DNA of 64,000 nt from Streptococcus uberis (GTDB lineage Bacteria; Bacillota; Bacilli; Lactobacillales; Streptococcaceae), in the NCBI RefSeq assembly GCF_900475595.1, contig NZ_LS483397.1, positions 1,273,001 to 1,337,000 on the forward strand, in the 5' to 3' direction. Under the pieces are notes generated by a model that was not told the origin of the DNA, searched no databases, and saw only the letters and a list, made by a program, of their open reading frames with translations. Numbering within the stretch: the stretch's first letter is position 1; the number at the start of each line of letters is the position of its first letter. The translations under genes were made by a program, and so were the position numbers. Below, one piece after another: positions 29,724-31,844 of the stretch.

Positions 29724-31790
29724 TTATGTTTTTGCCTTATTTGCCATATATAAATTAATGATATCCCGAGCCATTTGTTGATGCGATTTGGCTAAAGCAT
29801 CACTGGCATGAGGATACATAATGGCAACAGCTACTTCAGGATCTTGACTTGGACCATAGGCCACAACATTCAAGTTAAAAGTAGCAACTGTATTTCCTTC
29901 TTTATCTTTGGCATAAGTTTCAGCCGTTCCGGTTTTAGCACTGATTGGCACAGATCCACCCACCAAGCCTTTACCCGTTGCATATGGACTTGAACTGTTG
30001 ACAACCTGATAAAATCCTTCTTGCAGAATGGCTAACTGTTCTGAACTAATGGTGACTTTATTGAGGACAGTTGGCTCCAGTATCTTTTCTAATTTACCTA
30101 AGCCCTTTGTGCCATCATTAGCGTAGATACTATCAACAACATGAGGTGCAATTCTTTGTCCCCCATTGGCAATTGTTGATACATATTGGGCTAATTGAAG
30201 GGTTGTATAATTATCAAACTGGCCAAAAGCTTCCGTTAAAACATTTGAAGCCGTATAATCTTTGGTCACATAACCTTGTGATTCTCCAGGCAAATCAATA
30301 CCTGTTGATACTCCTAAACCAAATTCAGAAAAGGTCGATCGTAATGCCTCCATAGCTTTTTTCATTCCGTCAGTCATCAAAGACATACCAACATGATACT
30401 CTTGCCCCATCATTTTAAGAGCTATTTGAACCATATATGTATTTGATGAGTATTCCAAAGCTTGAGTTGCAGTTATATTTTGTTGACCTGCCGTAAACCA
30501 TGAATTAATAGGTTTTGAATTTCCAAACTGGATTGGCTGATCTGTTAAGACTTGATTTCCTGAAATAACACCATTTTGCCAACCTGCCGTTAGGGTGGCT
30601 CCCTTAACAACCGAACCCGGCGTGAAAACATTGGTGATGGTCCCAAGAGCATTTTTTTGAATCTGCCCCGAATCCAAATCACGAGACAAGCCCGACATAG
30701 CCAGAACAGCGCCTGTTTTTGGATTCATTGCAACAGCATAGACCCCTTCAGAATAGGTTGCTTTACCTTGAGATATTTCTGAATCAAAATAATTTCTGAC
30801 AATTTGATCCACACCATTTTGAAAATCAGTATCAATGGTTAGTTTAAGATTTTTACCTTTAGCGCCTTTTGAGGTAACCTTATCCGATAGAATTTTCCCT
30901 TTTTTATTGGTCTTTATTTCTCTAACGTCATGTTTACCTTGTAACACTTTTTCGTAAGCTTTTTCTAGGTAAGAAGTACCGACACGGTCGTTTAAGGAAT
31001 ATCCCTCTTTGAGGTATCTCTCTGCATCTTCCCGAGGAAGACCTGCCTCTTTACTGGAGACTTTACCAATAATTGAGTTGAGACTGGCATCCTCAACCTT
31101 GCGGTTCCAATCTGTCGAAATGGCAATGCCCGGCAACTTCGCTTTATTGGCAACGATATAAGCTATCTCTTGATCCGTTAAATCAGCTGTTCTTAGATAA
31201 ACGGTATTGAATGTGGCTGCCGCATTCATTTGATTGAATATTGAGATTTGTTTAACTTCCTCTGGAGAATAGGTTAATTCTTTTTCTGTCAGCGAAGCCA
31301 CAGCATTATTATAGATAACAGATTCTGCAAGACGATTACCATACTGATCCATTTTTTTGGCCTTTGGCAATTTTTCAACAACCTTGGCATAGACTTTAGG
31401 ATCAGCTAAATAATAGTCTTTTTTTGCTCTTAATGTGACTTTACTATCGGTGTAAGTAACATACTGAGATAATTTCTTAGCCAATTTTTTTAAATCAGCT
31501 GCACTCGTTTTTGGACTACGGGTATAGGAAACCACATCCTTTAATTCATTCGAAACAAGTACTTTTCCTTTATAGTCAAAAATCATACCTCTTGGATTGG
31601 AATTTTTGACTTTATAAACTGTTGATGCTTTTAATTTAGCATCATAAAAAGCTTTGTTCTGAATTTGCATGTGTGACAGTCGCAAGACAAGTGCTATGAA
31701 CAAAAGAACGATGATCAAAAATAAGAGGTGTATGCGATGAGGTATACTTGCCTTTTTTTTAACGATAAATGATGGTTTTTCTTTTTTAAT
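29724..31790 (-). CDS. pbp2b: Penicillin-binding protein 2B with ATT start
   Basis: Class B transpeptidase for elongation-phase peptidoglycan synthesis. One membrane segment lies at about residues 22-38. The dimerisation domain follows, then the transpeptidase domain with SVVK (active Ser about 393), SSN in YSSNTYMV, and KTG in SAKTGTAETY. No ATG, GTG or TTG lies between the GGAGG at 31799-31803 and codon 25. An ATT at 31788-31790, eight bases from GGAGG, gives a 688-residue protein with the basic cytoplasmic tail (KKEKPSFIVKKKASIPHR) that such proteins need. The TTG at 31716-31718 would start inside the membrane segment. Confidence 0.88.
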   Translation of the reverse strand: MKKEKPSFIVKKKASIPHRIHLLFLIIVLLFIALVLRLSHMQIQNKAFYDAKLKASTVYKVKNSNPRGMIFDYKGKVLVSNELKDVVSYTRSPKTSAADLKKLAKKLSQYVTYTDSKVTLRAKKDYYLADPKVYAKVVEKLPKAKKMDQYGNRLAESVIYNNAVASLTEKELTYSPEEVKQISIFNQMNAAATFNTVYLRTADLTDQEIAYIVANKAKLPGIAISTDWNRKVEDASLNSIIGKVSSKEAGLPREDAERYLKEGYSLNDRVGTSYLEKAYEKVLQGKHDVREIKTNKKGKILSDKVTSKGAKGKNLKLTIDTDFQNGVDQIVRNYFDSEISQGKATYSEGVYAVAMNPKTGAVLAMSGLSRDLDSGQIQKNALGTITNVFTPGSVVKGATLTAGWQNGVISGNQVLTDQPIQFGNSKPINSWFTAGQQNITATQALEYSSNTYMVQIALKMMGQEYHVGMSLMTDGMKKAMEALRSTFSEFGLGVSTGIDLPGESQGYVTKDYTASNVLTEAFGQFDNYTTLQLAQYVSTIANGGQRIAPHVVDSIYANDGTKGLGKLEKILEPTVLNKVTISSEQLAILQEGFYQVVNSSSPYATGKGLVGGSVPISAKTGTAETYAKDKEGNTVATFNLNVVAYGPSQDPEVAVAIMYPHASDALAKSHQQMARDIINLYMANKAKT

Positions 31791-31844
31791 GACAATAACC
31801 TCCTTACAAACTACCTTTCCTATTTTATCATAAATCGTAAAAAG

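What the first reader, a model, noticed from the sequence alone, without database searches (positions are those of the whole stretch)
31788..31803. pbp2b appears to start with ATT
Downstream of a strong GGAGG (31799-31803) the correct frame has no ATG, GTG or TTG for 24 codons. The only start-like codon at normal spacing (8 bases) is ATT at 31788-31790. Starting there restores the basic cytoplasmic tail that class B PBPs have before their membrane anchor. The first conventional codon, TTG at 31716-31718, would start inside the membrane segment. AUU starts are known mainly from infC, where they tune expression through IF3. Here one would limit synthesis of a beta-lactam target.
Basis: partly seen in the sequence, partly recalled or inferred. 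Interest (0 to 1): 0.7.

Follow-up and report, generated by a model that had tools for sequence, protein, structure and literature searches.

The report
Cell-wall gene starting with ATT
A streptococcal cell-wall gene that is a penicillin target appears to begin with ATT instead of a normal start codon, and about ten related species show the same kind of odd start, which may keep its production low.

Summary
In detail: GGAGG (31803-31799), 8 nt, ATT (31790-31788); the pbp2b frame then has no ATG/GTG/TTG before TTG 31718-31716, inside the membrane segment.

It is not a sequencing error. I read this region in 102 distinct Streptococcus genomes of the 284 searched. Eleven carry ATC (9) or ATT (2) here, 7-8 nt after the Shine-Dalgarno (SD) sequence; one more is ambiguous. 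In 7 of the 11, no in-frame NTG lies between the predicted transcription start and the membrane segment; in S. catagoni an in-frame TGA stands two codons upstream. The tail between ATT and TTG evolves like the rest of the protein, so it is translated. Database proteins start at five different kinds of place; the one matching S. catagoni lacks the membrane anchor.

Parallels: infC has ATA 8 nt after GAGG in 21 of 21 loci read. An ECF sigma-factor gene of this genome has ATT at the same spacing; ATH is kept in 28 of 30 loci read.

Best reading: a genuine weak AUU/AUC start helped by a good SD, as in infC, Streptomyces sigR and S. aureus ccpN. IF3 control is inferred. Caveats: four of the 11 have competing NTGs, and a 99%-identical database protein starts two codons earlier.

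The parts
29724..31790 (-). pbp2b coding sequence from ATT to stop, 688 codons plus stop
   Evidence: Open frame; NF038278 strep_PBP2B 1153.9 bits, cut-off 975; orthologues in the genus
31788..31790 (-). Proposed ATT start codon
   Evidence: Position and spacing; ATC/ATT at the same place in 10 other genomes
31798..31805 (-). Shine-Dalgarno AAGGAGGT
   Evidence: Sequence; predicted duplex with the 16S 3' end -12.9 kcal/mol
31719..31787 (-). 23-codon N-terminal tail and start of the anchor between ATT and the first NTG
   Evidence: pN well below pS in all nine genome pairs compared
31716..31718 (-). First conventional codon, TTG, inside the membrane segment; rejected as the start
31683..31727 (-). 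Membrane anchor LLFLIIVLLFIALVL (by inspection)
   Evidence: Translation; conserved in the alignment
31822..31830 (-). Extended -10 element TGATAAAAT (by inspection)
   Evidence: TGNTAAAAT 30-35 nt before the start codon in 14 of 14 genomes compared; the consensus scan did not list it as such
31845..31870 (-). Terminator-like hairpin between the upstream gene and the pbp2b leader
   Evidence: 2 sites found, both strands of one hairpin; shuffles mean 0.1
31794..31796 (-). In-frame ATT 2 nt after GGAGG, where database protein P0001 must have its first codon

Best explanation
Translation of pbp2b begins at the ATT at 31790-31788, read as formyl-Met by initiator tRNA with a mismatch at the third position. 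An AAGGAGGT Shine-Dalgarno on a short leader holds the 30S subunit and makes up in part for the weak codon. IF3 should discriminate against this start, so PBP2b synthesis would be low and would vary inversely with free IF3, whose own gene has an AUA start. Supported here by sequence: position, SD, lack of usable NTG codons, translation of the tail, conservation of an AUU/AUC start. Inferred from other bacteria: lower yield and IF3 sensitivity. My odds: start codon real 0.87; yield clearly below an AUG start, given that, 0.8; IF3-dependent tuning with a physiological role 0.45.
For: ATC/ATT at the SD-spaced position in 11 of 102 genomes read, all in the group nearest this genome in PBP2b. In 7 of those 11 no in-frame NTG lies between the predicted transcription start and the membrane segment; G000 and G203 have none back to the upstream stop, and G203 has a TGA two codons before the ATC. 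The tail between ATT and TTG shows pN/pS ratios of 0.14 to 0.30 in nine pairs, against 0.05 to 0.24 in the rest (computed). infC in the same genomes has an invariant ATA 8 nt after GAGG in 21 of 21 loci read. S. aureus infC AUA, cvfC1 AUU, ccpN AUA and citZ AUA starts are experimentally supported and give about 10% of an AUG start in poor medium (PMC13009471, passages). Streptomyces sigR (GTC) is repressed by IF3 and misannotated at nearby NTG codons (PMC5472188).
Against: No protein, ribosome or expression data. P0001, 99% identical to the window protein and heading a cluster of 268, begins MVIKKEKP, so another strain may have an NTG at 31796-31794, 2 nt after GGAGG. G078 has an in-frame TTG 2 nt after the SD; G015 has that and a second TTG preceded by AAGGA; G071 has an ATG and G213 a GTG touching the SD, and G071 also a TTG at codon 18. 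GTC before the start codon is kept in 9 of 11 genomes, as if it might be coding. Spacing 2-3 nt is rare here but exists (3 of 48). The SD of these genes is not stronger than in the two NTG relatives compared (-12.4 to -14.9 against -11.9 and -15.6 kcal/mol), and in G033, G051 and G195 it is GGGGG. The supporting branches of the tree are weak.
Confidence: 0.7

Rival explanations
1. The ATT/ATC start is real but has no regulatory role: a weak start tolerated because SD and promoter compensate, kept by common descent and drift.
For: One relative inside the group has ATG (G208) and the equi/dysgalactiae side has ATG or TTG, so a normal start is compatible with life; the SD is not stronger than in the two NTG relatives compared.
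Against: A single base change in the third position would give ATG, yet 11 genomes that differ by up to about 0.7 in silent sites over the rest of the gene keep ATC or ATT.
Confidence: 0.3
2. The true start is two codons upstream at 31796-31794 (ATT here, NTG in some strains and relatives), 2 nt after GGAGG.
For: P0001, P0006 and P0007 are annotated there (MVIK...); TTG at that place in G078 and G015; GTC kept in 9 of 11 genomes.
Against: The codon there is ATT, ATC, AGT, TTG, TGA or AAA among the 11 genomes, a stop in S. catagoni; only 3 of 48 ATG starts here have spacing of 2-3 nt, one of them 2. In this window it would itself be an ATT start with a worse spacing.
Confidence: 0.07
3. Start at the internal TTG 31718-31716, giving a protein without cytoplasmic tail.
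For: First conventional codon in the frame.
Against: Almost no SD match (1 of 7), inside the anchor, and the 23 codons before it are under purifying selection.
Confidence: 0.02
4. Start at the out-of-frame TTG 31795-31793 with slippage on the A runs further down to reach the PBP frame.
For: TTG 3 nt after GGAGG opens 26 codons; A6 and A8 runs follow.
Against: The NTG and the A8 run are not shared: G071 and G213 have no NTG at that place, and the A8 run is broken in G033 and G193.
Confidence: 0.01
5. Sequencing error for an ATG.
For: The finding alone rests on one assembly.
Against: Ten other genomes have ATC or ATT there, and P0001, a different sequence of the same gene, also has Ile at this residue.
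Confidence: 0.01

Closest known systems
infC (IF3): AUU in E. coli, ATC in Streptomyces, AUA in S. aureus
   Same: ATH start, SD at the same spacing of 8 nt in the same genomes, misplaced by gene callers
   Different: infC is autoregulated by its own product; pbp2b would be a target only. An in-frame GTG overlaps the infC SD in the 21 loci read
sigR of Streptomyces, GTC start repressed by IF3 (PMC5472188; abstract and sections 4, 10 and 12 read)
   Same: Non-canonical start, extensive SD (AGGAGGTG there), conserved in a genus, misannotated at nearby NTG codons
   Different: GTC, a sigma factor, IF3 repression shown by experiment; here not
cvfC1 (AUU), ccpN (AUA) and citZ (AUA) of S. aureus (PMC13009471, passages read)
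   Same: Firmicutes, AUH starts with strong SD, cvfC1 and ccpN conserved
   Different: Mapped by retapamulin profiling and reporters; other gene functions
pncA/bbe22 of Borrelia, AUU start (PMC13398362, abstract read)
   Same: AUU start, database protein truncated at a later codon, like P0005 here
   Different: A plasmid-borne metabolic enzyme; the abstract says nothing of IF3
Streptococcal PBP2b with conventional start
   Same: Same gene and protein family
   Different: ATG, GTG or TTG start in the other genomes read

Membership tests
Genes with a non-canonical start limited by IF3 (infC/sigR kind) | No NTG codon usable as start in the frame at this SD | tested here: met
   G000 and G203 have none upstream of the membrane segment; 7 of 11 have none within the predicted transcript; 4 of 11 have competitors
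Genes with a non-canonical start limited by IF3 (infC/sigR kind) | Strong SD at working distance | tested here: met
   AAGGAGGT, 8 nt from GGAGG; spacing 7-9 in 10 of 48 ATG starts with SD of 5 or more
Genes with a non-canonical start limited by IF3 (infC/sigR kind) | Start conserved among related species | tested here: met
   ATC or ATT in 11 of 102 genomes read, one group plus S. halichoeri
Genes with a non-canonical start limited by IF3 (infC/sigR kind) | Initiation at the codon shown in the cell | not testable with these tools
   Needs profiling or N-terminal proteomics
Genes with a non-canonical start limited by IF3 (infC/sigR kind) | Expression repressed by IF3 | not testable with these tools
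   Needs reporters in IF3 fidelity mutants or with added IF3
Streptococcal PBP2b (NF038278) | Score over the curated cut-off | tested here: met
   1153.9 bits against 975, residues 11-684

The most novel reading that the evidence does not exclude
Streptococci have a small IF3-sensitive set of genes with AUH starts: infC (AUA), an ECF sigma factor with a probable membrane anti-sigma factor overlapping it (AUU/AUC/AUA), and, in part of the pyogenic group, pbp2b (AUU/AUC). Free IF3, and so the state of the translation machinery, would set the supply of a beta-lactam target and of an envelope-type stress sigma factor.
Probability: 0.35. Interest if true: 0.8.

Novelty: new member of a known kind. 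Interest (0 to 1): 0.6.

Why it matters
If right, a cell-wall enzyme that beta-lactams target is throttled at its initiation codon in a whole group of streptococci, and its N-terminus is wrong in databases. It would tie PBP2b dosage to IF3 and give a testable case of start-codon control outside infC. It also shows a practical gap: gene callers that know only ATG, GTG and TTG give different false starts in these species, and for S. catagoni a protein without its anchor. In ten literature searches (open-licence PubMed Central papers only, mostly seen as listings) I saw no report of this start in pbp2b or of an AUH start in a streptococcal sigma factor.

Tried and rejected
Internal TTG, out-of-frame TTG with slippage, the codon two places upstream and sequencing error: see the rivals. 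Coupling to the upstream gene: its stop ends at 31885, 94 nt before the ATT, with a terminator-like hairpin between.

Leader folding: for -25 to +80 the predicted fold pairs GGAGGT with ACCTC about 50 nt into the coding sequence (-15.95 kcal/mol), but 16 of 200 shuffles fold as well (z -1.5); of the other 13 genomes, 12 also pair at least part of the SD in the predicted fold, all but S. catagoni, the two NTG relatives included, with z between -2.2 (an NTG relative) and 1.0. I do not read this as a switch.

Pattern counts in the genome are not above reversed controls. The promoter scan did not list the -10 used here. A viral-contig scan for P0001 found no relative, so the strain difference at 31796-31794 is open.

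Limits of the survey: 182 of 284 genus genomes were not read at the start region, mostly the less similar. All 90 genomes counted as conventional have at least one in-frame NTG before the anchor, often with a weak SD match (2-3 of 7). Outside the group an ATH codon scores above every NTG in seven loci (L014, L042, L077, L094, L096 at 6 codons before the anchor; L116, L130 at 23); I did not count them, since an NTG stands upstream of the five and downstream of the two at the place usual for their relatives. L077 I saw by scores only, its sequence being in the cut part.

Full report
What was claimed.

Searches show AAGGAGGT (31805-31798), eight bases between GGAGG and ATT, and a frame open from 31856 to 29724. 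Starting at ATT gives a basic tail (KKEKPSFIVKKKASIPHRIH) before the anchor LLFLIIVLLFIALVL; the first conventional codon, TTG 31718-31716, lies inside the anchor. The protein is PBP2B (NF038278, 1153.9 bits, cut-off 975). Among 54 window ORFs no other has an ATH codon 6-9 nt from a full AAGGAGG.

Comparison with relatives. One search covered 284 genomes of the genus (one search was a first draw of 197); all 284 gave some match, though one (G044, best E 8.4e-12) shows only a distant PBP. I read the start region in 102 distinct genomes: 42 among L001 and L003-L049 after dropping six loci that are the same genomes twice, and 60 in L073-L132. Eleven have ATC or ATT at the SD-spaced position: G000 ATT; G033, G051, G195, G193, G200, G203, G071, G078 and G015 ATC; G213 ATT. 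The spacing is 7 nt in G033, G051, G195, G193 and G200, and 8 nt in the other six; the SD is GGGGG in G033, G051 and G195. G283 is ambiguous (ATA or ATC, against a TTG 16 nt from its SD). The other 90 have an in-frame NTG.

No other start serves all of them. All 14 genomes compared have TGNTAAAAT 30-35 nt before the start codon, so the leader is short (about 25 nt if transcription starts some 7 nt beyond, an assumption). In G033, G051 and G195 the only upstream in-frame NTG is an ATG 3 nt after this element, and in G193 and G200 an ATG upstream of it, so outside the likely transcript. G000 and G203 have none back to the upstream stop, and in G203 that stop is a TGA two codons before the ATC. 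The other four have competitors: G071 an ATG touching the SD (and a TTG at codon 18), G213 a GTG touching the SD, G078 a TTG 2 nt after the SD, G015 that TTG and another one preceded by AAGGA. G015 is the least certain. Database proteins follow these accidents: P0002 starts at the ATG beside the -10 element, P0003 at the ATG at the SD, P0013 at the GTG, P0006 and P0007 at the TTG, P0004 at an ATG far upstream, and P0005, on a contig of the same length as that of S. catagoni, at MQIKDKAF after the anchor.

The tail is translated. Over the 23 codons between the start codon and the position of the window's TTG, pN/pS in five closer pairs are 0.04/0.19, 0.04/0.28, 0.04/0.35, 0.02/0.12 and 0.13/0.44, against 0.02/0.19, 0.03/0.32, 0.03/0.29, 0.01/0.20 and 0.10/0.67 in the rest of the gene; in four more distant pairs the tail gives 0.14/0.52, 0.14/0.52, 0.26/0.96 and 0.18/0.66, the rest 0.15/0.72, 0.17/0.72, 0.16/0.74 and 0.14/0.70. 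The tail has only 13-16 silent sites, so single values are rough.

Descent. On an rpoB tree of 25 genomes, 10 of 22 inner branches are well supported. Ten of the ATH genomes fall in one group with G283 and G208 (ATG); that branch is weak (83/79). S. halichoeri falls, also weakly (82/52), with the equi/dysgalactiae side. At least three changes between ATH and NTG are needed, G283 left out; gain and loss cannot be told apart. On that other side the starts of G160, G175, G018 and G155 lie 3 to 8 codons nearer the anchor (ATG at -14 or -17 against -20 to -22), as if made anew.

Positive control. All 22 genomes searched have infC. In the 21 whose locus could be read, GAGGTGAA is followed by ATA 8 nt after GAGG; the ATA is invariant while the codon before it is ATC, ATT or GTC. 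G127 gave infC in two pieces and was not read. An in-frame GTG overlaps the SD in all 21, so the sequence alone does not prove the ATA; in S. aureus the infC AUA start was seen with retapamulin (PMC13009471, passages).

A second gene of the same design. The genome scans turned up one other long ORF with ATT 8 nt after AAGGAGG and no NTG near: a 166-codon ECF sigma factor (TIGR02937, 73.4 bits, cut-off 42.9), followed by an ORF in an overlapping frame with one hydrophobic stretch, probably its anti-sigma factor (inference). Of 279 genus genomes 100 have a relative at E 1e-15 or better. In the best 30 loci ATT, ATC or ATA stands at the aligned start in 28; L213 has ATG and L200 an ATG one codon earlier. 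Spacing varies (7 to 12 nt). In 22 of 30 no NTG has an SD match of 4 or more bases; in the other 8 one does, among them GTG codons beside or in the SD. The design recalls Streptomyces sigR, a sigma-factor gene with a GTC start that IF3 represses (PMC5472188).

How it most likely works. The 30S subunit is held by the SD on a short leader; initiator tRNA pairs with AUU at two positions; IF3 rejects many such complexes. In S. aureus reporters such starts gave about 10% of an AUG start in poor medium, one up to 30% in rich medium. PBP2b would be made at a modest level that depends on IF3. The place of the start is supported by sequence; the low yield and the IF3 step are inference.

What speaks against. 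P0001 differs from the window protein at four residues, heads a cluster of 268 and begins MVIKKEKP, so some strains may have an NTG 2 nt after GGAGG. GTC before the start is kept in 9 of 11 genomes. Spacing of 2-3 nt is rare but present (3 of 48). The SD is not stronger than in the two NTG relatives compared. No protein or ribosome evidence exists here.

Verdict. The start is very probably genuine and shared by a group of species: a new member of a known kind, in a gene where I found no report of it. Its regulatory role is open. The host is a Streptococcus near the species named above; I guess S. uberis by elimination, untested.

Noticed in passing
L168 / L191 (own genome C1:227324-227821, minus strand): ECF sigma-factor gene with ATT 8 nt after AAGGAGG, overlapped by a probable anti-sigma ORF; ATT/ATC/ATA at the aligned start in 28 of the 30 loci read out of 100 genomes with a relative.
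   Followed up: partly
L050-L070, infC loci: Streptococcal infC has an invariant ATA 8 nt after GAGG in 21 of 21 loci read, with an in-frame GTG overlapping the SD.
   Followed up: partly
Proteins P0002-P0007 and P0013: Database PBP2b proteins of the group begin at five different kinds of place; P0005 lacks the membrane anchor.
   Followed up: partly
window 31796-31794 and P0001: P0001 differs from the window PBP2b at four residues (33, 253, 610, 615) and starts two codons earlier, a possible strain difference at the start.
   Followed up: partly
G044: A one-contig Streptococcus genome rated 100% complete gave only a distant PBP match (best E 8.4e-12), so pbp2b may be absent or very different there.
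   Followed up: no
G155 C1:639520-641043 and G159 C13:165843-167855: The pbp2b match of G155 covers only query residues 11-518 with one TGA, that of G159 has one TAA inside; not examined.
   Followed up: no
L071 and L072 (G127): infC of G127 is found as two pieces in frames of 109 and 107 codons, a frameshift or an assembly error.
   Followed up: no
window 31845-31870: The hairpin upstream of pbp2b scores as terminator-like on both strands.
   Followed up: no
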